In this document: piece after piece, positions 4,489 to 50,547 of the stretch
Layout of the letters: every line of letters starts with the position of its first letter
Numbering within the stretch: the first letter of the stretch is position 1
From: Parvibaculaceae bacterium PLY_AMNH_Bact1
GTDB lineage: Bacteria > Pseudomonadota > Alphaproteobacteria > Parvibaculales > Parvibaculaceae
Direction: 5' to 3'
DNA: 64,000 nt
Assembly (NCBI GenBank): GCA_032881465.1
Contig: CP126168.1
Span: forward strand, 1,488,001-1,552,000
Notes under the pieces: generated by a model
Database searches by the model: none
Seen by the model: the letters and a program-made list of their open reading frames with translations, nothing else
What the model was told of the DNA's origin: nothing
Made by a program: the position numbers and the translations under genes

Positions 4489-5079
4489 TCAATCAGCTGG
4501 TCCATGGACGTGTTGTTCAGCGAAACTTGGCATTTCGGGATGGCCAGAACCTATATCAACAAGTTCTGTCACAATCTCTGATAAGCCAAGAGCTGTTGGC
4601 TCGCCAACCTCGGTAAAGCCGGTGGCTTCGTGATGAACATGGTAAGAGAAGAAGAGAAAAGTGTCCGTTGACGCATCTTTCCTTAGAGGAAAGGTGATAC
4701 TCTCGCTTTTAGCTTTGCGACCTGATTGAAAGACACTCTCATACACAACATACGACCCGCAGGGGTGGTCGATGATCACCTTGTGAAGAGCAACTGCTTC
4801 TTCACGTTTTTCTTGAGCGATGAGGTCCAGTGTATTTCGGCCAGCAGGATTAAAACCCAGTCGGTCTGTTATGTTTTCGCCTGCAATTCGGAAGATGATG
4901 GTGTTGTCGTCCACATACTCAGTCATCGTGATGTTGGCCAGCATGGGCGCGAGTGAACGCATTGGCAAAAGATCTCGGCGACCGATTGAATGATCTGATT
5001 GTGATGCGCGGTAGGCGGAAACAAACGCACCAATCTTGTCGGGTGCCGATGAGAAAGCGACAAGTTCGTCAAACGTCAT
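4489..5079 (-). CDS. PAS_5-type domain protein, copy 2
   Basis: A 196-residue paralogue of the flanking genes. It shares LLPMRSLAPMLANITMTEY, IIFRIAGENITDRLGFNPAG and the Tyr-Val-Val-Tyr-Glu-Ser segment with copy 1. An AAGGA ribosome site lies about eight bases before the ATG. It carries no catalytic motif, membrane segment or effector domain. Spacers of 53 bases to the upstream copy and 90 bases to the downstream copy are compatible with one transcript reading leftward from about 5750. Function unknown; the family name is a reading of the sequence, not a search result. Confidence 0.75.
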   Translation of the reverse strand: MTFDELVAFSSAPDKIGAFVSAYRASQSDHSIGRRDLLPMRSLAPMLANITMTEYVDDNTIIFRIAGENITDRLGFNPAGRNTLDLIAQEKREEAVALHKVIIDHPCGSYVVYESVFQSGRKAKSESITFPLRKDASTDTFLFFSYHVHHEATGFTEVGEPTALGLSEIVTELVDIGSGHPEMPSFAEQHVHGPAD

Positions 5080-5132
5080 CGTTTGTTTCCTTCGGAGGAC
5101 TGCACGGGATCAGGCATCCCACAACTTTCTCA

Positions 5133-5750
5133 TTAGTCTTCAAGCTGAATTTCCAAATGGTCAGGCTGCCTCCGCCCTTGAGATTGTTCCGCCTCTGAAG
5201 TGGCCCGAGGAACACCGAATCCAATATCAACAAAATCCGCTACCACCCAACGGACCCCAAGTGAGGTGCGTGCGCCCAGGCCGTAGCTGTCTGTTCTTTG
5301 GTGATGGATATGGTAGCCGAATATGAGATTAACCGTGCTTCCAGAGGTTTTTGACATCGGCAGCATAAGGCTCTCGCTCATCATGCGGCGTCCGGATTCG
5401 TATTCGTTTTCGTAAACAGCGTAGTGTCCACATCGCTCTTCCAAGCCGGCTTTATTTGTGAGCGCTGTTTCTTGGCGGACCGAGGGGGCAATAAGGTCCA
5501 AAAAATTGTGTCCCGTGGGGTTGAAGCCAAGGCGCGCAACGATTGCCTCGCCAGCAATCCGATAGACGATGCTATTCTCGTCAATGCGCTCCATGAGTGT
5601 CACGTGAGGAAGAAGAGGGGCCATGGCTCGCATCGGCAGCAGATCCTGAGCGGCGATAGAATTGCCATTCTGTGCCTGTTGATAGGCATTGAAGGCGCTT
5701 TGTAACGTCTCCGGGGCGAGTGATTGCGCGATCACCTCATCAAACGTCAT
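5133..5750 (-). CDS. PAS_5-type domain protein, copy 3
   Basis: A 205-residue protein, first gene of the leftward PAS_5 triplet. The shared blocks are LLPMRAMAPLLPHVTLMER and IVYRIAGEAIVARLGFNPTG, followed by a YAVYENEYESG segment. Its C-terminal tail is longer and differs from the other two. The start at 5750 is preceded by AGGAG at the right distance; an upstream ATG at 5780 has no such site. The gene is divergent from trhO, leaving about 200 bases (5751-5947) for promoters of both directions. Function unknown. Confidence 0.75.
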   Translation of the reverse strand: MTFDEVIAQSLAPETLQSAFNAYQQAQNGNSIAAQDLLPMRAMAPLLPHVTLMERIDENSIVYRIAGEAIVARLGFNPTGHNFLDLIAPSVRQETALTNKAGLEERCGHYAVYENEYESGRRMMSESLMLPMSKTSGSTVNLIFGYHIHHQRTDSYGLGARTSLGVRWVVADFVDIGFGVPRATSEAEQSQGRRQPDHLEIQLED

Positions 5751-40511: not shown

Positions 40512-40542
40512 TTAGCGCATAATTTATAGTATTATGGCCGAG
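40512..40542 (+). other. left attachment site, half dif-like (attL)
   Basis: XerC-type arm TTAGCGCATAA (40512-40522) is followed by TTTATAGTA and then TTATGGCCGAG. The first 14 bases from GCGCAT (40515-40528) are the same as in the right site at 50432-50445. The XerD half is off: TTATGG is shifted by three bases and the outer part does not match. This fits a junction of the host XerC arm with the centre and poor XerD half of a phage attP. Confidence 0.75.
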
Positions 40543-41338: not shown

Positions 41339-41737
41339 ATGGCTAAGAAAATTGGATTTCTGTCAGAGACAGCCAGCAAGGTGACTGGTGAAGTCGGCTA
41401 CATGGGCAAGATTGATGTTGCCGGGATCGAAGGCAAGTGCGCCTTGGTTCCTCAGGCAAAGCGGTCAGAGCGTTCGCCGGACTATGAGGTCCAGATTTAT
41501 CGCAATGGTCGATGGCTGAATTTCGGGGCGGCATGGATCAAAACGCCAACGGTCGGCGGCGAGGATTTTCTATCGCTCACAGTCGATCATGAGTTGATGG
41601 AGAAGGCGGTCTATTGTGCTGCCTTCCCGCCTTCTGAGGAAGATGACGAAGGTCAGTGGGCGATTGTCTGGGGGAGACCCAAGGGCGGGAATGCTCGCGG
41701 TGTTGCTGAAGCCGTTGACGATGAAATCCCGTTCTGA
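41339..41737 (+). CDS. DUF736-like protein with SSB-type acidic C-terminal tip
   Basis: A 132-residue protein. The core resembles DUF736: KIGFLSETASKVTGEVGYMG at the start, then DYEVQIYRNGRWLNFGAAWI and a GEDFLSLTVDH strand. The tail ends EAVDDEIPF, nearly the acidic tip (DDDIPF) by which bacterial single-strand-binding proteins recruit partners. A role as phage SSB in rolling-circle replication is an inference. Of the two adjacent ATG codons (41336, 41339) the second fits the AAAGGA ribosome site. It overlaps the next gene by one base. Confidence 0.7.
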   Translation: MAKKIGFLSETASKVTGEVGYMGKIDVAGIEGKCALVPQAKRSERSPDYEVQIYRNGRWLNFGAAWIKTPTVGGEDFLSLTVDHELMEKAVYCAAFPPSEEDDEGQWAIVWGRPKGGNARGVAEAVDDEIPF

Positions 41738-42096
41738 TGGCAAGTGTCGCTCATGCGGTTGACTGGCCTCCGGTCTCTCTCTGGCAACCTCCCAAACATG
41801 AGACATGGATGGGCGTGCCGGATAGTTCGGTCGTGGCGCTGGTCTTCCGCCTAAGTGGCAATGACGTTGTGATCCGCGCGCCGTTGCATACAGCAATCGA
41901 CATAGCGTCTCACGCCTTCAAGAACGGCCTCGCCGATGATTTCCAGATTGGATCATGGCGATGGCACTCCAAGCGTCTCATGAAGCCACTACAGGCCATG
42001 AGGGACGCCTTCAAAAGAGATCAGGAATTTAGACGGCAGGTATGGCGCGAGCTTGAAGCGTTGGGTCTGCTCGGCAATCCACAAGTGAAAATTTAG
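41737..42096 (+). CDS. hypothetical phage protein
   Basis: A 119-residue protein of unknown family, coupled to the SSB-like gene by a TGATG overlap. It has a Trp-rich start (DWPPVSLWQPPKHETWMG) and a C-terminal helical, basic part (RLMKPLQAMRDAFKRDQEFR). No membrane segment. By position in the early region it may serve replication or its control. Confidence 0.6.
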   Translation: MASVAHAVDWPPVSLWQPPKHETWMGVPDSSVVALVFRLSGNDVVIRAPLHTAIDIASHAFKNGLADDFQIGSWRWHSKRLMKPLQAMRDAFKRDQEFRRQVWRELEALGLLGNPQVKI

Positions 42097-42106
42097 GTCA
42101 GGGGAA

Positions 42107-42430
42107 ATGATGCAAGTTGAGCATTGTTATTTAAACTATCGGTTTCTCAACGAGGCGAATAGGCGCCGCGAGAAAAACCGAAAGGATAGAAATTTGTCAG
42201 ACGATTTGGGTAGTCCTGAGCGCCATCTGATTTGGGTGAATGCATCCAATGATGGTGAGGAAGTTATGGACGGTGAGTTTTCTGTAGATGCAGCAAGTCC
42301 AATGTTGGCACTTCGTGAGCTCTTATTGCGATGGGAGGAAGAGGAAGTGCTAGGCGGCAGTCGCCGTCACTCATCGCTTCATGTGACGGATCGCGTCGAG
42401 TTTGTGATTTCTCTTAAGCCGGATCATTGA
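42107..42430 (+). CDS. hypothetical phage protein
   Basis: A 107-residue charged protein with no recognised family. It contains a basic stretch (NEANRRREKNRKDRN) and an acidic helix (RWEEEEVLGG). Two adjacent ATG codons open the frame, preceded by GGGGAAATG. It lies between the early hypothetical gene and a hairpin upstream of rep. Confidence 0.55.
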   Translation: MMQVEHCYLNYRFLNEANRRREKNRKDRNLSDDLGSPERHLIWVNASNDGEEVMDGEFSVDAASPMLALRELLLRWEEEEVLGGSRRHSSLHVTDRVEFVISLKPDH

Positions 42431-42446
42431 TCCTATTTTGAAAAGC

Positions 42447-42467
42447 GGGGGTGCTTGTAGCACCCCC
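42447..42467 (+). repeat. perfect hairpin upstream of rep
   Basis: Arms GGGGGTGCT and AGCACCCCC around a three-base loop TGT, 22 bases before the rep start. The following bases are CCC TAGG, with no T-run, so it is not a classical terminator. Rolling-circle Rep proteins often nick in a hairpin next to their own gene, which makes this a candidate double-strand origin. Confidence 0.5.
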
Positions 42468-42488
42468 CCCTAGGATTACAGGTGACAC

Positions 42489-43637
42489 ATGGAAATTAGG
42501 AGACTGCATCATGGTCTTGACGGTTTGGACATTACCTTTCAGGGCTGCGTGGGTGTTGCTCTCCTATCTTTGCTGGAGCGCGCCAAAGAAGCTGCTCAGC
42601 AAAGTAAGCAGCCTGAACATGTCTCATATAAGGGATTGGAGTTTGCGGTTCTTCCTGTTGGTGTGTCCGGTTATCGTTTTGTGGTGGACACTGGACCGGA
42701 CGGGGAGAAGTGGTTTTTTGCCAAGTCTTCAAAGCGAGATGGATGGAATGTGCGTGTGTCAGTCGCGTCGATGTCGCTCGCACTGTATGGCTACACGGCT
42801 GTAAAGGATCGCATTTGGGAAAGGCTGGAGCACTTCGGCGCGTACATCCTGGACCATTCCGTATCGCGTGTTGATTATGCCTGTGACTTTGAAGCCCCTG
42901 ACTTTCAGATTAAGCCTGAATGTGTCGTTGCTCATTGGCGCATGACACAACGGGAATACGTCGAGACAGAGAAAAGCGGTGAATTCCACATTGTCCGACA
43001 GTCCCGTAAAATCAATTCATTGACGATAGGTCGAATGCCGGGGCGTCAGGTCATTATCTATAATAAGCGGCGTGAGGTGATTGACCGCAAGAAAACCTAT
43101 TGGTGGGGCATCTGGGATGTTCCCAAAGATACGCAAGTTTGGCGTGTCGAAGTGAGAGCCGGAAAGCGTGAGCTTAAGGACAAGTGGAATATCACAACGC
43201 TAGACGATCTTGAGGGCAACCTTCCTGATATTGTCGGGTCAATGTTGGCTGACATTCGGCTTCATGATGCCGACCAGACGGATAGCAATGTCTCCCGACA
43301 AGAATTACACCCTATGTGGATGGCGGTTACTGAGGCGGCTCTCAAGCCCTTTGCTGAGGACGTGGTAGGGCCAGATCCAGAGCCGATCATTCTCGAAACT
43401 CAATCGCAGATGCAAGACCGTTTCTTCGGCCTTGTGAATGGCCTCACAGCGTCTCTCAGCGTCGTTACGGGTGCAATGGATGGAGACCTGCCGGAAGACC
43501 TTGGTGAGCGTCTCACGGCCTCTATCAACGCCTATGTGAAGGCAAACAAAACCAAATTTATCGACAGTCAGAAGCGAGCGCGAAAGCGCTTGAGATTTGC
43601 GGTGGACCCGGGCGCATGGAGCGTTCCGGCAATGTAG
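42489..43637 (+). CDS. phage replication initiator, Rep_trans/RstA-like
   Basis: A 382-residue protein with the pattern of PF02486-type (Rep_trans) initiators of small phages and plasmids. It has an internal SRVDYACDFE (126-135), then VIIYNKRREVIDR (188-200) with the Y-x-K-x-x-E pattern holding the presumed nicking Tyr 191, and then WRVEVRAGKREL (218-229). The C-terminal 120 residues are specific. Such proteins start rolling-circle replication by nicking one strand at the origin. It may do the job that P12 does in PM2, though relation to P12 is not established here. Confidence 0.72.
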   Translation: MEIRRLHHGLDGLDITFQGCVGVALLSLLERAKEAAQQSKQPEHVSYKGLEFAVLPVGVSGYRFVVDTGPDGEKWFFAKSSKRDGWNVRVSVASMSLALYGYTAVKDRIWERLEHFGAYILDHSVSRVDYACDFEAPDFQIKPECVVAHWRMTQREYVETEKSGEFHIVRQSRKINSLTIGRMPGRQVIIYNKRREVIDRKKTYWWGIWDVPKDTQVWRVEVRAGKRELKDKWNITTLDDLEGNLPDIVGSMLADIRLHDADQTDSNVSRQELHPMWMAVTEAALKPFAEDVVGPDPEPIILETQSQMQDRFFGLVNGLTASLSVVTGAMDGDLPEDLGERLTASINAYVKANKTKFIDSQKRARKRLRFAVDPGAWSVPAM

Positions 43638-43646
43638 GAGGCAGAT

Positions 43647-44075
43647 GTGCCAGAAAGCAAAAAGGACGAAAAGGAAAAGCCGGAGCATCGCCTGTCTGGG
43701 GTCGCAATTGGGCTGATGGATTGCCCGGATTGCGAAACGGAGAAACCCATAAGGGTGAACAGGAACGGCAATGCGTATTTTGACTGCCGGGAGGTGGTCG
43801 ACAGTGAGACAGGCGAGCGGTGTTACTGCTCTCGAAAATGGGGCCGGGTTAGATCGGCTGAAATGATCAAGGATTATGAGGAGGCCAATCGTGGCGAAAC
43901 TTCCCAAGGTGAGCAACAAGACGGCGGGAGTGCGGAAGTCAGCGCCGAAGAAAGCAGCACCCAAAAAACCAGTTCCGAAGAAACCGGAGCCGACGACGAT
44001 GACGATATCGTCGGACAGGGACATGCCGACAACGACGATGGATGTGAAATCCCCGGATTCGCCTTCCTCGCCTGA
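43647..44075 (+). CDS. zinc-finger-like phage protein with acidic tail
   Basis: A 142-residue protein starting at GTG. The N-terminal half carries Cys residues in a ribbon-like pattern, CPDC (26-29), C47 and CYC (59-61), in a basic context, so zinc binding and DNA contact are plausible. The C-terminal half is strongly acidic and Ser/Glu/Asp-rich (GADDDDDIVG). The last 185 bases also encode the start of the next gene in another frame. PM2 likewise encodes small zinc-finger regulators, but homology is not shown. Confidence 0.6.
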   Translation: MPESKKDEKEKPEHRLSGVAIGLMDCPDCETEKPIRVNRNGNAYFDCREVVDSETGERCYCSRKWGRVRSAEMIKDYEEANRGETSQGEQQDGGSAEVSAEESSTQKTSSEETGADDDDDIVGQGHADNDDGCEIPGFAFLA

Positions 44076-44538
44076 CACGTCGCATATAGACGCGATCATT
44101 GCCGATTTGAAAGCAACAGAGCCGGTTGCTCCTATAGGGACGGGTGGGGCGTCGCCTATAGGGATCAATGCAGATGGGTTCATCGGCAAGGATGAATTTT
44201 TCGGCATGTTCCAGTTTGTGTTTATGGCGGGCCACGGGGCGACGCAGCTTCAGTCTCTCAACATTGAAGGCAGCGAGACGGCACGCCCTGCCAGTGATGC
44301 GCTATACGATATTTGCGAGGAAACCCCGTCTCTCCAGTTCTTTATCAAACCGGGTGGCAAGTGGATGCAGCGGGCAGCGGCTATAGGCATGTTCGTGGTT
44401 CCAGTGGCGATGGGTTGTAAGGCGGAACTGGCCGCGCGGAAACAGGCCAAGGTTGCAAAGGATGCACCGGCCCCATCGGCAACAAATGAGCCGTCAAACG
44501 AAGATGCTATGAAGGATTTCGACAATGCAACAGGTTGA
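43891..44538 (+). CDS. phage protein with Lys/Pro-rich N-terminus and hydrophobic segment
   Basis: A 215-residue protein. The N-terminal part is Lys/Pro/Ala-rich (SAPKKAAPKKPVPKKPEP). The middle is Gly/Phe-rich (FIGKDEFFGMFQFVFMAGHG) and a hydrophobic segment lies around 170-185 (AAAIGMFVVPVAMGC). The start is taken as the GTG at 43891 with GAGGAGG six bases before it; an ATG at 43876 has no such site. It overlaps the preceding gene by 185 bases and the ATPase gene by 14. Location next to the ATPase suggests a structural or packaging partner. Confidence 0.6.
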   Translation: MAKLPKVSNKTAGVRKSAPKKAAPKKPVPKKPEPTTMTISSDRDMPTTTMDVKSPDSPSSPDTSHIDAIIADLKATEPVAPIGTGGASPIGINADGFIGKDEFFGMFQFVFMAGHGATQLQSLNIEGSETARPASDALYDICEETPSLQFFIKPGGKWMQRAAAIGMFVVPVAMGCKAELAARKQAKVAKDAPAPSATNEPSNEDAMKDFDNATG

Positions 44539-45160
44539 CCCGAAACGGATTGCCATTTTTGGAGCCAGCGGCACCGGCAAGAGCACCCGTGTGCGCCAGC
44601 TAATAGCCGAACGCGAGCGCGTCATCGTCTACGATGTGCTGCACGAGTACCCGGGGCATGTGGTCGCTACGCTGGTCGATCTGATGGAAGCGATCAAGCT
44701 GAAATGGGATCAACCGTTCAAGCTGATCTACCGGCCCGCTATAGGGACAGACCGCGAGAAAGAACTGCACAACCTGTCTATGGCTCTGTTTCGGGTGCAG
44801 GAGCCCTATAAGGCGGGCAAGTGGCGTGAGCCTATAACGTTGGTCGTTGAGGAAATGAGCACCTGCTACAACGTCTCGATGCGGCCGCCTGAGCGTGATG
44901 GCTTTGGGGAGCTATGTTCCATGGGGCGACATTATGGGATCGGCGTTATAGGGGTCTCTCAGCGTCCCGCGCAGGTCGGCACCAACTTTCGGGGCAATGT
45001 CTCTGAGACCTATGGTTTCCGTCTCGCTGAGAACACCGACATTCAGTATTTCCGACAGAAGTTTGGCAGCGCTGTTGCGGCCTCCATGCCTGATTTGGCT
45101 GTAGGTGAATGTCAGTTCCTTAAAGACGGGAAGGTCGAGCGGGTGCAATTTCAAGCCTGA
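44525..45160 (+). CDS. genome-packaging ATPase, A32/P9 (FtsK-HerA) type
   Basis: A 211-residue P-loop ATPase. Walker A is GASGTGKST (13-21), Walker B is ITLVVEEM (104-111), and the sensor stretch GVIGVSQRPAQV (140-151) carries the Gln-Arg-Pro typical of the packaging ATPases of PRD1 and PM2 and of Zot-like proteins. Size and single-domain layout match P9 of PM2. It should pump the genome into preformed capsids. It precedes two tiny membrane-protein genes and the capsid gene, the order expected for this phage group. Confidence 0.85.
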   Translation: MQQVDPKRIAIFGASGTGKSTRVRQLIAERERVIVYDVLHEYPGHVVATLVDLMEAIKLKWDQPFKLIYRPAIGTDREKELHNLSMALFRVQEPYKAGKWREPITLVVEEMSTCYNVSMRPPERDGFGELCSMGRHYGIGVIGVSQRPAQVGTNFRGNVSETYGFRLAENTDIQYFRQKFGSAVAASMPDLAVGECQFLKDGKVERVQFQA

Positions 45161-45191
45161 AAAACCCTATAGGAATTTCGCTATAGGAATT

Positions 45192-45222
45192 TGGCCCAAG
45201 GGGATTCCCTTTGGGCCATTTT
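45192..45222 (+). terminator. terminator behind the ATPase gene
   Basis: Arms GGCCCAAGGGG and CCCTTTGGGCC (one mismatch) around a short loop, followed by ATTTTTCTG. It would separate the early/packaging genes from the structural genes. Two CTATAGG copies stand directly before it at 45167-45173 and 45181-45187. Confidence 0.65.
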
Positions 45223-45283
45223 TCTGTCGTCCTCATGGCATCTGAGGCGGGTGAGCCGCCACTTCATCAATGAGGCTTTGACA

Positions 45284-45379
45284 ATGAAATCTCTCAATCT
45301 GACAGCCATCGCAACGGGCGCTCTGACGTTCGCCGCTGGCATGTTTTTGTATGAGAAATTCGTCAAGCCGAACCTGTAA
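45284..45379 (+). CDS. 31-residue membrane protein
   Basis: Sequence begins MKSLNLTAIATGALTFAAGM and ends YEKFVKPNL. One hydrophobic segment (about 6-23) is flanked by Lys residues. Very small membrane proteins of this kind make up the inner membrane of PM2-type virions. The ribosome site is weak (GAGGCTTTGACA). It sits between the ATPase and capsid genes and 11 bases before another tiny membrane-protein gene. Confidence 0.55.
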   Translation: MKSLNLTAIATGALTFAAGMFLYEKFVKPNL

Positions 45380-45390
45380 GGGGCGGCTTC

Positions 45391-45528
45391 ATGAACTCTC
45401 TTATTCCAACGGGCAAAATGGTCGTAGGCGGCGTGGTGGCCGTTCTCGCTGTTGGCCTGCTCTTCCGACACTTTGGTGACGCGCCTGTCGTGGCGGACTC
45501 ACGCAAAGGCTTTCAGGGGCTTCTCTAA
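45391..45528 (+). CDS. 45-residue membrane protein
   Basis: Begins MNSLIPTGKMVVGGVVAVLA; the hydrophobic segment runs to about residue 27. It is followed by a soluble tail ending SRKGFQGLL. A GGGGCGG ribosome-like site precedes the ATG. The stop TAA is followed directly by the ATG of the capsid gene, so it is tightly linked to virion production. Likely a component of the virion membrane. Confidence 0.6.
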   Translation: MNSLIPTGKMVVGGVVAVLAVGLLFRHFGDAPVVADSRKGFQGLL

Positions 45529-46356
45529 ATGGGTATCCACTACAATCGAAAATTGCCTGACTTCTCGCCTGTGCAGGCGGGCGCTCAAGCAGCCATTCAG
45601 ATCCCTCGTGGTCCGACCTATCGCACCCTCATTCTGAAATATGCCCGTGGTGGCACTCCTGCCACTGAGGCGCAGTTAAAGTCTGATATTGAACAGGTGC
45701 GCATCAAGGTCAACGGAACAACCCGATGGGCGGCTACCGGCACGCGCTTGGTGGATATTCTCACCAAGTATTACGGCCACACGCTGACCGATGGGCTTTT
45801 GTTCATTGATCTGGCGCGGCACGATCTGGCCACTATCCAGGGCGCGGACAATCTCGCTTGGGGCACCAACAATGTTCAAACGCTGACGCTGGAAGTCGAT
45901 ATCGCTTCAGGTGCGGTCAATCCAGAAATCGAAGCCCATGCGGTGATTGATCCGGTCAAGCGTGACCTGGGCATGATCGTTGAGTGTTGGGAGGTTCCCT
46001 TCAGCACAGCTGTTGGTGGCACGTTTGAAATTTCGACAATTCCCGAAGCGCGAGGGCAGCTATTTGCGATGCATGTTGCTGGAGCGAATGCCACGGGCTT
46101 GGAAGTGGAAATCGACAATGTGATTTTCCAAAACGCGCCTTCTGATGTTCTGAACGCACTCTATGCCCGAGTGCCTTCCGGTCGTGTGCCGCAAGCTGAC
46201 TATCAGCACTATACGCCTACCTATCTTGATCGGTTGGATGATGTGCTGCCTTTGTCCGCTCAAGACTGGCGGTTGAAGGTCGCTATGTCGGCGGCGGGGT
46301 CTGCTGACATCTTCATGGAAACGCTTAATCAGCCGCTTGGTCCGGCTGCGGTTTAG
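45529..46356 (+). CDS. major capsid protein, PM2 P2-like double jelly roll
   Basis: A 275-residue, beta-rich protein. PM2 P2 is 269 residues. The N-terminal half shows the pattern of P2-type coat proteins: VRIKVNGTTRW (57-67), LTKYYGHTLTDGLLFIDLAR (78-97) and NLAWGTNNVQTLTLEVDI (108-125). The second half repeats a beta-rich layout, as expected of two stacked jelly rolls. Trimers of such proteins form pseudo-hexameric capsomers around an internal membrane. The position after the packaging ATPase and membrane genes supports the call. A structure prediction would settle it. Confidence 0.8.
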   Translation: MGIHYNRKLPDFSPVQAGAQAAIQIPRGPTYRTLILKYARGGTPATEAQLKSDIEQVRIKVNGTTRWAATGTRLVDILTKYYGHTLTDGLLFIDLARHDLATIQGADNLAWGTNNVQTLTLEVDIASGAVNPEIEAHAVIDPVKRDLGMIVECWEVPFSTAVGGTFEISTIPEARGQLFAMHVAGANATGLEVEIDNVIFQNAPSDVLNALYARVPSGRVPQADYQHYTPTYLDRLDDVLPLSAQDWRLKVAMSAAGSADIFMETLNQPLGPAAV

Positions 46357-48383: not shown

Positions 48384-49040
48384 ATGAGCCGTTTTGCAGC
48401 ATTCATCGGGGCTATCGCAACAGCACTCGGCACCTGGGGGCTTATCTCTCGTCCATCGTCAGGTGTGCCCGCAGAAATCCCCGGCGCTCCTAGATCATCA
48501 ACGCCCACCCCGAGGCAGCGACCTGCTGCAACAGTAGCTCCCGCGTCGTTCAACCCTCCCACGCAGTCGGCGCGGGGGCGACTGTCATTCAACGAGGCCA
48601 AGGCTTTGGCGCTCAAAATCACGCGGACATATTTTCCGTCTGTCGATCCAAAAATGTTGGTCGCCATGATGCAGATTGAAAGCTCGTTTGATCCACGGGC
48701 AACGCGCTCAGAGCCGCATGTAAGAAACCGTTTCACGACCAACGGTGACAAATCTTACGGGCTTATGCAGGTGCTCTACACAACGGCGCTTGATCTCTTC
48801 CATAACATGGGTCGAAAGGGATTTAGCGTTGCCACGCCAGACAGACTTTTTGACCCGACTGTGAATGTCTATTTCGGCGCGGCCTATGTCGCATGGCTTC
48901 AAAACTATCGTGGCACGCGGCGCTCAGAAGACTGGATTGTGATGTCGTACAACGGCGGACCCGGTGCCAACAATTCACAAACCCAAAATCATCTCGCGAA
49001 ATATCACGACGCGAAACGAGCACAAGCAGGGGGCTGGTGA
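48384..49040 (+). CDS. lytic transglycosylase (SLT family)
   Basis: A 218-residue protein. Its N-terminal hydrophobic stretch (about 4-21, FAAFIGAIATALGTWGL) is either a signal or a membrane anchor, and a Pro/Ser/Thr-rich linker follows. The SLT domain has VAMMQIESSFDPRA (catalytic Glu 99), KSYGLMQVL (124-131) and VMSYNGGPGANN. It cleaves peptidoglycan between MurNAc and GlcNAc. In membrane-containing phages such an enzyme can be a virion protein used in entry, or the endolysin. It follows the spike candidate by one base. Confidence 0.85.
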   Translation: MSRFAAFIGAIATALGTWGLISRPSSGVPAEIPGAPRSSTPTPRQRPAATVAPASFNPPTQSARGRLSFNEAKALALKITRTYFPSVDPKMLVAMMQIESSFDPRATRSEPHVRNRFTTNGDKSYGLMQVLYTTALDLFHNMGRKGFSVATPDRLFDPTVNVYFGAAYVAWLQNYRGTRRSEDWIVMSYNGGPGANNSQTQNHLAKYHDAKRAQAGGW

Positions 49041-50288: not shown

Positions 50289-50547
50289 TTTTCGCCCCCG
50301 ATATTTGCCTAGGGTGAAAAAGTTGATTTTTTGTTGTGGCCGGGCGATCTGTCGCGGAAGTAATCGGTTCCGATGAATATTGCACTATTCTTTCTAGCTC
50401 CGCATACGGACGAACCGTCACGAACCAAAAGGCGCATAATTTATATTATGGTAAATAATAGACGTCTTTCCAGTCGACCTGGCCGTAAGCATAGGCTTCT
50501 ATAGAACGTAAGGAATCTGCGAAATTCCACGTCTGGAGGAGACATTT
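50289..50547. other. spacer holding the right dif site
   Basis: 259 bases between the divergent HTH gene and the CDGSH gene. It contains the complete dif-like site (50429-50456) and is AT-rich around it. No gene is seen; promoters for both flanking genes must lie here. Confidence 0.5.
50429..50456 (+). other. dif: complete dif-like XerC/XerD site (attR)
   Basis: XerC arm AAGGCGCATAA (50429-50439), six-base centre TTTATA (50440-50445), XerD arm TTATGGTAAAT (50446-50456). It matches 23 of 28 positions of E. coli dif as I recall it, and the inner halves of the two arms (GCGCATAA and TTATG) are fully kept. Together with the half-site at 40512 it brackets the prophage. Gene orientation flips around this point, as expected near the terminus. 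Confidence 0.85.

What the first reader, a model, noticed from the sequence alone, without database searches (positions are those of the whole stretch)
41339..41737. DUF736-like protein ending in an SSB-type acidic tip
The 132-residue early phage protein ends EAVDDEIPF. The last residues copy the partner-binding tip of bacterial SSB (DDDIPF). The body resembles DUF736, a family often found on alphaproteobacterial plasmids and without known function. This suggests that DUF736 proteins, or this branch, are single-strand-binding proteins that recruit host replication factors.
Basis: partly seen in the sequence, partly recalled or inferred. Interest (0 to 1): 0.72.

Follow-up and report, generated by a model that had tools for sequence, protein, structure and literature searches.

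The report
Phage barrel protein with SSB tip
A small protein of a membrane-containing phage hidden in a bacterial chromosome belongs to a family of unknown function and ends in a copy of its host's SSB partner-binding tip; its relatives sit where sister phages carry a real single-strand DNA-binding protein, so it may be a stand-in for SSB, which would give an unexplained plasmid family its first testable job.

Summary
The ORF at 41339-41737 is a DUF736 protein (Pfam E 4.1e-15) ending DDEIPF, the same six residues that end the host's own SSB.

It lies in a 9.9-kb Vinavirales (PM2-like) prophage, two small ORFs upstream of a Rep_trans-like replication gene.

The tip is not a DUF736 trait: 109 of 111 distinct DUF736 proteins lack it; the two exceptions are this protein and its sister-genome homologue. 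It recurs in a third, 32%-identical phage DUF736 ending DDDIPF, like that host's SSB. In 12,462 ORFs the strict motif occurs 15 times, only in SSBs (12) and phage DUF736 proteins (3).

Of 16 loci with this Rep type, 10 carry DUF736, 3 a true SSB in the same slot, 3 neither; none was seen with both. This suggests that DUF736 replaces SSB in the replication module.

AlphaFold gives an eight-stranded beta protein with a disordered tail and no significant PDB match; ssDNA binding could not be tested.

Best reading: a replication accessory protein that works like SSB on a non-SSB scaffold.

The parts
41339..41737 (+). DUF736 protein P0001, 132 aa, the finding itself
   Evidence: open frame; PF05284 E 4.1e-15; AlphaFold eight beta strands, mean pLDDT 79
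41681..41716 (+). short disordered linker, residues 115-126
   Evidence: pLDDT under 50 for residues 115-132
41717..41734 (+). SSB-type C-terminal tip DDEIPF, last six codons
   Evidence: identical to the last six residues of the host SSB, L155
40638..40970 (-). divergently transcribed phage regulator (HTH type)
   Evidence: phrog_638 transcriptional regulator E 4.5e-15; homologues in 8 other loci, L055 only at E 0.002
41737..42096 (+). 119-aa protein of unknown function, start overlaps the DUF736 stop (TGATG)
   Evidence: sequence; homologue at the same place in L052; no family hit above cut-off
42107..42430 (+). 107-aa protein of unknown function
   Evidence: open frame; no family hit
42489..43637 (+). 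Rep_trans-like replication initiation protein
   Evidence: PF02486 E 7.7e-4, below the gathering score; its relative in L185 passes it, 30.4 against 29.6 bits, and matches this Rep at E 9e-48
43876..44538 (+). 220-aa protein upstream of the ATPase, conserved in sister phages
   Evidence: homologues in L050, L052, L053, L150
44525..45160 (+). packaging ATPase
   Evidence: phrog_2666 E 1.1e-20
45529..46356 (+). [quoted passage not shown]
   Evidence: P2_N E 1.5e-25 and P2_C E 6.2e-19; 34% identical to Vibrio phage fNo16 capsid protein
48384..49040 (+). lytic transglycosylase (SLT domain)
   Evidence: PF01464 E 3.1e-17
40515..40532 (+). left border repeat, dif-like
   Evidence: 18-nt direct repeat, 94% identical, 9,917 bp from the right copy; likeness to dif is recalled
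50432..50449 (+). right border repeat, dif-like
   Evidence: a longer 23-nt dif-like pattern matches only this copy, the left one shares just the 18-nt core

Best explanation
P0001 is a phage replication accessory protein that works like SSB on a different scaffold. The phage most likely copies its circular genome through a Rep_trans-like initiator, which would expose single-stranded DNA (inferred). The DUF736 barrel would sit on that DNA or at the origin (inferred). Its flexible tail ends in a copy of the host SSB tip (shown), which would dock into the SSB-Ct pockets of host proteins such as PriA, primase DnaG or the Pol III chi subunit and bring them to phage DNA (inferred from known SSB-Ct biology). 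The gene travels with the replication module and its slot is taken by a true SSB in sister phages (shown by comparison of loci). DUF736 proteins without the tip would cover DNA but leave recruitment to host SSB (inferred).
For: (1) Tip identical to the host SSB tip DDEIPF. In G133 the phage DUF736 and the host SSB both end LDDDIPF; in G006 they end EDEIPF and DDEIPF. (2) Strict tip in 15 of 12,462 ORFs, all SSB or phage DUF736. (3) Of 16 loci with this Rep type, DUF736 lies within 0.8 kb upstream of Rep in 8, at the other end of the same element in 2, a true SSB (PF00436) lies within 0.8 kb upstream in 3, neither in 3; none seen with both. Both kinds occur inside one Rep subgroup: L051 and L186 have DUF736; L053, L060 and L149 have SSB. 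(4) Two of the three slot SSBs also carry the tip. (5) The two best DUF736 profile hits without a capsid match, in G235 and G153, both proved to have this Rep. (6) Sister genome G006 shares DUF736 (95%) and Rep (78%) while the capsid proteins are 31% identical, so the replication module moves as a unit. (7) AlphaFold: ordered barrel, disordered tail. (8) SSB-Ct binds more than 14 partners including DnaG, chi, PriA and ExoI (PMC5872125, passages).
Against: Nothing here shows ssDNA binding. Neither model has a significant match to an OB or SSB structure. The first 114 residues of P0001 carry net charge -4. Seven of ten Rep-linked DUF736 proteins lack the strict tip; one of these (G235) ends ADEAGPF, a weak variant. 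Tip-bearing rows form no supported clade, so the number of origins is open. Three plasmid elements with this Rep type (L151, L152, L153) and four prophages with another Rep type (L057, L058, L059, L148) show neither DUF736 nor SSB. The window Rep itself is below Pfam's gathering score. L053 and L186 are cut by contig ends, so the absence of a second gene there is not certain.
Confidence: 0.52

Rival explanations
1. Adaptor without DNA binding: the barrel binds Rep or the small proteins beside it, and the tip recruits a host factor (for example PriA or chi) to the initiation complex. ssDNA is covered by host SSB.
For: Tip is real and close to the host's; close linkage to Rep, directly adjacent in L051, L185, L186 and L201; no OB match; acidic body.
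Against: The same slot holds a true SSB in 3 of 16 loci, which an adaptor role does not predict; most DUF736 partners of this Rep lack the strict tip.
Confidence: 0.22
2. Decoy or counter-defence: the tip competes with host SSB for nucleases and repair proteins (ExoI, RecJ, RecQ, RecO), or the phage uses a non-SSB scaffold to avoid defence systems that sense phage SSB.
For: Several defence systems are triggered by phage SSB (PMC10732053, passages); the authors of PMC9502842 propose escape from unknown defences to explain frequent swaps of Vinavirales replication genes (passages).
Against: Position in the replication module and exchange with SSB fit replication better; no defence target was identified here; three sister phages do keep a normal SSB.
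Confidence: 0.14
3. The tip is a chance C-terminus on an ordinary DUF736 protein.
For: Most DUF736 proteins, including most Rep-linked ones, lack it.
Against: Three occurrences, one in a 32%-identical protein, each equal or close to its host's SSB tip; no strict tip in any ORF that is not SSB or phage DUF736 among 12,462; the last five residues are kept between G000 and G006.
Confidence: 0.04

Closest known systems
DUF736 (PF05284) of alphaproteobacterial plasmids and ICEs
   Same: P0001 passes the family cut-off; eight strands are also predicted for a typical member. In Mesorhizobium ICEs and plasmids with one type of conjugation cluster, DUF736 genes are present on all elements, often in duplicate (PMC8627217, passage).
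   Different: Most members aligned here are about 97-123 aa and stop shortly after the last strand without a tip; a few have long tails, also without a tip. P0001 adds a linker and the SSB tip and lies near a Rep_trans-like gene.
Bacterial and phage SSB (PF00436)
   Same: C-terminal tip; disordered linker; SSBs hold the same place before Rep in sister phages L053, L149, L060.
   Different: No PF00436 match of P0001; no significant OB match; much shorter linker than the host SSB.
Vinavirales clade A prophages (PMC9502842)
   Same: P2-type capsid protein, packaging ATPase, alphaproteobacterial host; the paper shows an example in which the replication gene and two or three short ORFs upstream are replaced (section 3.2 read; passages). 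A figure legend lists ssb, and another names Rep_trans.
   Different: A term search of its main text finds no DUF736; its supplements were not read.

Membership tests
DUF736 (PF05284) | profile match above the curated cut-off | tested here: met
   56 bits against 22.1, E 4.1e-15; L050, L051, L055, L150, L184, L185 also pass
SSB (PF00436) | profile match to the SSB OB domain | tested here: not met
   no PF00436 hit up to E 1
SSB (PF00436) | acidic C-terminal tip ending IPF | tested here: met
   DDEIPF, same as host SSB
SSB (PF00436) | OB fold | tested here: inconclusive
   no PDB match at E 0.001 for either model; best VIA Z 5.9 (rmsd 4.5, 96 aligned) and 6.2 (rmsd 3.9, 95 aligned) to other beta proteins
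SSB (PF00436) | binds single-stranded DNA | not testable with these tools
   needs a binding assay
Vinavirales clade A prophage (host element) | PM2 P2-type capsid protein | tested here: met
   P2_N E 1.5e-25, P2_C E 6.2e-19
Vinavirales clade A prophage (host element) | packaging ATPase upstream of the capsid gene | tested here: met
   phrog_2666 E 1.1e-20
Vinavirales clade A prophage (host element) | placement in clade A of the capsid protein tree | not tested
   no capsid tree was built; an alphaproteobacterial host is consistent
Rep_trans (PF02486), for the neighbour gene | match above the gathering score | tested here: not met
   19.6 against 29.6 bits for the window gene; relative in L185 reaches 30.4, so called Rep_trans-like

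The most novel reading that the evidence does not exclude
DUF736 is a family of single-stranded DNA-binding proteins on a non-OB barrel, used by phages, small integrative elements and ICEs/plasmids of alphaproteobacteria. The phage branch has gained, possibly more than once, a copy of the host SSB tip that turns it into a full replacement for SSB.
Probability: 0.3. Interest if true: 0.82.

Novelty: new variant of a known kind. Interest (0 to 1): 0.62.

Why it matters
A tblastn search with P0001 alone finds DUF736-type matches on 414 plasmid records, and DUF736 genes were on all elements of one Mesorhizobium ICE survey (PMC8627217, passage), yet Pfam lists the family as of unknown function. In the held library only two papers contain the word DUF736, and neither passage gives a function. 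The phage branch gives a direct hypothesis: a host-like SSB tip plus exchange with SSB beside the replication gene. It can be tested with one purified protein and standard SSB partners. If right, it adds a non-SSB scaffold that has taken on SSB's partner-binding code, and a way for a phage to recruit host replication factors without carrying an SSB that defence systems can sense.

Tried and rejected
Close relatives in public contigs: P0001 in viral contigs and genome contigs, and the capsid protein, A2, A6 and A4 in viral contigs, gave pattern hits of which none was confirmed. IMG/VR therefore gave no further members. The search of the own genome with PF05284 returned nothing although hmmscan matches P0001; that tool's first look missed it, so absence from its family searches is weak evidence.

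Roseobacter plasmid hits aligned by tblastn up to residue 132 looked like conserved tips. The two that I read, in L032 and L033, are 242-aa proteins with two DUF736-like stretches; by coordinates the aligned stretch ends in mid-protein and the protein does not end in a tip. Rejected as support; the other such hits were not read.

Fold: Foldseek and VIA give only weak matches to barrels (avidin, lipocalin, PilZ, DUF3237). Non-significant rows include the baculovirus ssDNA-binding protein LEF-3 (PDB 7ypo E 0.39; viral model E 0.21) and a phage JSF9 SSB (E 0.89); I give them no weight. No SSB is among the VIA rows shown, which the tool says excludes nothing. One viral model, A0A6J5NJD2 of an uncultured tailed phage, matches at E 2.3e-4, uncharacterised.

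The slot protein of L148 looked DUF736-like by eye, but the profile search gave no hit. Not counted. L049, L054 and L056 show no replication gene that I recognised and are left out of the counts.

Tree of 37 DUF736 rows: long branches, the phage label needs 4 changes; neither one nor several origins of the tip is shown. L026, later found to be Rep-linked, was labelled as plasmid type there.

SSB near DUF736 in general: 1 of 115 loci and the plasmid fetches, so no SSB link outside the Rep-linked group. A Rep_trans-like ORF was seen in 7 of 144 loci scanned, among them the window and its sister. Loci from the genome search have only about 1.5 kb on each side.

Host SSB tips: of the 10 genomes, 9 host SSBs end in the strict tip; that of G017 is cut by a contig end.

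Full report
The observation. The reading frame at 41339-41737 is open, 132 codons, and ends EAVDDEIPF. Pfam assigns it to DUF736 with 56 bits against a cut-off of 22.1. A protein search of its genome finds it once at E 2.6e-89; the next match is at 0.43. Its stop overlaps the start of the next ORF (TGATG).

The element. The gene lies in a prophage bounded by an 18-nt direct repeat at 40515 and 50432 (9,917 bp apart) that resembles a dif site (recalled). The element encodes a PM2 P2-type double jelly-roll capsid protein (P2_N E 1.5e-25), a packaging ATPase (phrog_2666 E 1.1e-20), a lytic transglycosylase, a divergent regulator and a Rep_trans-like protein (PF02486 E 7.7e-4, below the gathering score; a relative in L185 passes it). 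Capsid protein, ATPase and variable replication genes are what PMC9502842 describes for Vinavirales (section 3.2 read; passages). The host belongs to a family that includes Parvibaculum: contig G016:C4 of the same family has the same length, 227,475 bases, as a contig titled Parvibaculum sp. EAC77.

The tip and its controls. The host's only SSB match ends PIDDEIPF, so the last six residues of the phage protein equal those of the host SSB. Among 111 distinct DUF736 proteins from 114 loci, 2 end in the tip: P0001 and its 95%-identical homologue in sister genome G006. Of the 109 others one, L026, was later found beside a Rep_trans-like gene; for the remaining 108 no such link was seen. Among the 28 loci L156-L183, one has the strict tip (L156, the DUF736 of G133); 22 of the 28 show no Rep link here and none of the 22 has it. 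A count over all distinct ORFs of 60 aa or more in 201 sequences gives 15 strict tips in 12,462: 10 host SSBs fetched on purpose, 2 phage SSBs, 3 phage DUF736 proteins. A looser rule (PF end, two or more acids in the six residues before it) adds two: the DUF736 of G235, ending ADEAGPF, and one other ORF ending DDRRPF.

Recurrence. The DUF736 of the G133 prophage is 32% identical to P0001 and ends LDDDIPF. The SSB of that host also ends LDDDIPF. For G006, phage and host end EDEIPF and DDEIPF. The tips thus equal or nearly equal the host's own, but three cases are few.

The slot. I took the loci with a capsid match, those with a Rep match in named plasmids, and those with a phage-type DUF736. 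Sixteen loci, the window included, have the Rep_trans-like protein. DUF736 lies within 0.8 kb upstream of it in eight: window, L052, L055, L051, L150 (Thalassospira marina plasmid, product named DUF736 family protein), L185, L186 and L201. In two (L050, L184) DUF736 lies at the far end of the same element. Dif-like direct repeats enclose both genes there (L050: 29 nt at 2805 and 13714; L184: 19 nt at 23 and 10129), so that on the circle DUF736 would come before Rep. In three (L053, L149, L060) a true SSB (PF00436) lies within 0.8 kb upstream of Rep; two of these SSBs end in the tip (DDRIPF, DDEIPF). In three plasmid elements without a detected capsid gene (L151, L152, L153) I found neither. 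No locus was seen with both; L053 and L186 are cut by contig ends. The Reps fall into two subgroups by mutual score; within one of them both DUF736 (L051, L186) and SSB (L053, L060, L149) occur. Four prophages with another Rep type (L057, L058, L059, L148; PF01446 for L057) have neither. Capsid-positive loci L049, L054 and L056 show no replication gene that I recognised and are not counted. L184 and L185 were taken as the two best DUF736 hits without a capsid match; L186 was chosen after reading its sequence, but its Rep link also appears in the unselected control, which finds a Rep_trans-like ORF in 7 of 144 loci fetched mainly for DUF736.

Module exchange. G000 and G006 share DUF736 at 95% and Rep at 78% identity, while their capsid proteins are 31% identical. 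PMC9502842 shows two near-identical prophages that differ in the replication gene and two or three short ORFs upstream of it (passage). DUF736 or SSB would be one of these ORFs.

Structure. AlphaFold on 25 sequences gives P0001 eight beta strands, mean pLDDT 79, and a disordered tail from residue 115. A typical DUF736 also gets eight strands, at pLDDT 88.7. Foldseek finds no PDB match at E 0.001 for either; the best VIA scores are Z 5.9 (avidin permutant) and 6.2 (PevD1), within the range the tool calls common. Sequence searches find no solved relative (best E 0.3). So the fold looks like a small antiparallel barrel and not obviously like OB; this test is inconclusive.

Mechanism. Shown: family, tip, likeness to the host tip, slot, presence of SSB in the slot of sister phages, predicted disorder of the tail. 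Inferred: that the phage makes single-stranded DNA through Rep, that the barrel binds it, and that the tip recruits SSB partners. SSB-Ct is known to bind DnaG, chi, PriA and ExoI among more than 14 proteins, and in DnaG a conserved arginine is suggested to form a salt bridge with the C-terminal Phe (PMC5872125, passages). Rivals are an adaptor without DNA binding and a decoy or counter-defence role; phage SSBs trigger AbpAB, Retron-Eco8, Hachiman, Hna and Nhi (PMC10732053, passages), which would reward a phage for not using a normal SSB.

Verdict. The claim holds, in part, for the phage branch. It does not extend to DUF736 as a family: the plasmid and ICE members examined lack the tip. In the held library only two papers contain the word DUF736 (search listing), and the passages read give no function. 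It is a new variant of a known kind: an SSB-tip protein on a non-SSB scaffold.

Noticed in passing
L151, L152, L185, L201: Elements with the same Rep_trans-like gene but without a detected capsid gene have other cargo beside it: GajA/GajB (Gabija) matches in L151, type I methyltransferase and specificity subunits plus a PDC-S02 match in L185, an AAA ATPase with weaker matches to several defence ATPases in L152, and a 1467-aa protein without Pfam or PADLOC match in L201. They may be phage satellites or defence-carrying integrative elements.
   Followed up: partly
window 41339-46356 and L052 7846-12535: Two sister genomes share the replication module (DUF736 95%, Rep 78%) while the capsid protein is only 31% identical: a capsid/replication swap.
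   Followed up: partly
window 40515 and 50432; L050 2805 and 13714; L184 23 and 10129: Dif-like direct repeats enclose three of these prophages, suggesting XerCD/dif integration (recalled mechanism); PMC9502842 calls the integration mechanism of most Vinavirales prophages unclear.
   Followed up: partly
L184 1232-10002: A prophage in G235 has Rep, ATPase, a transglycosylase-like ORF (by eye) and DUF736 (ending ADEAGPF) but no match to the P2 capsid profile; its capsid gene may be very divergent.
   Followed up: no
L032 5992-6717, L033 5968-6693: Roseobacter plasmids encode 242-aa proteins with two DUF736-like stretches.
   Followed up: no
L148 around 5000-5360; L058 13670-14089; L059 13490-13993: Prophages with the other Rep type have short proteins in the slot before Rep; those of L058 and L059 resemble each other by eye, and that of L148 looks DUF736-like by eye but scores nothing against the profile.
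   Followed up: partly
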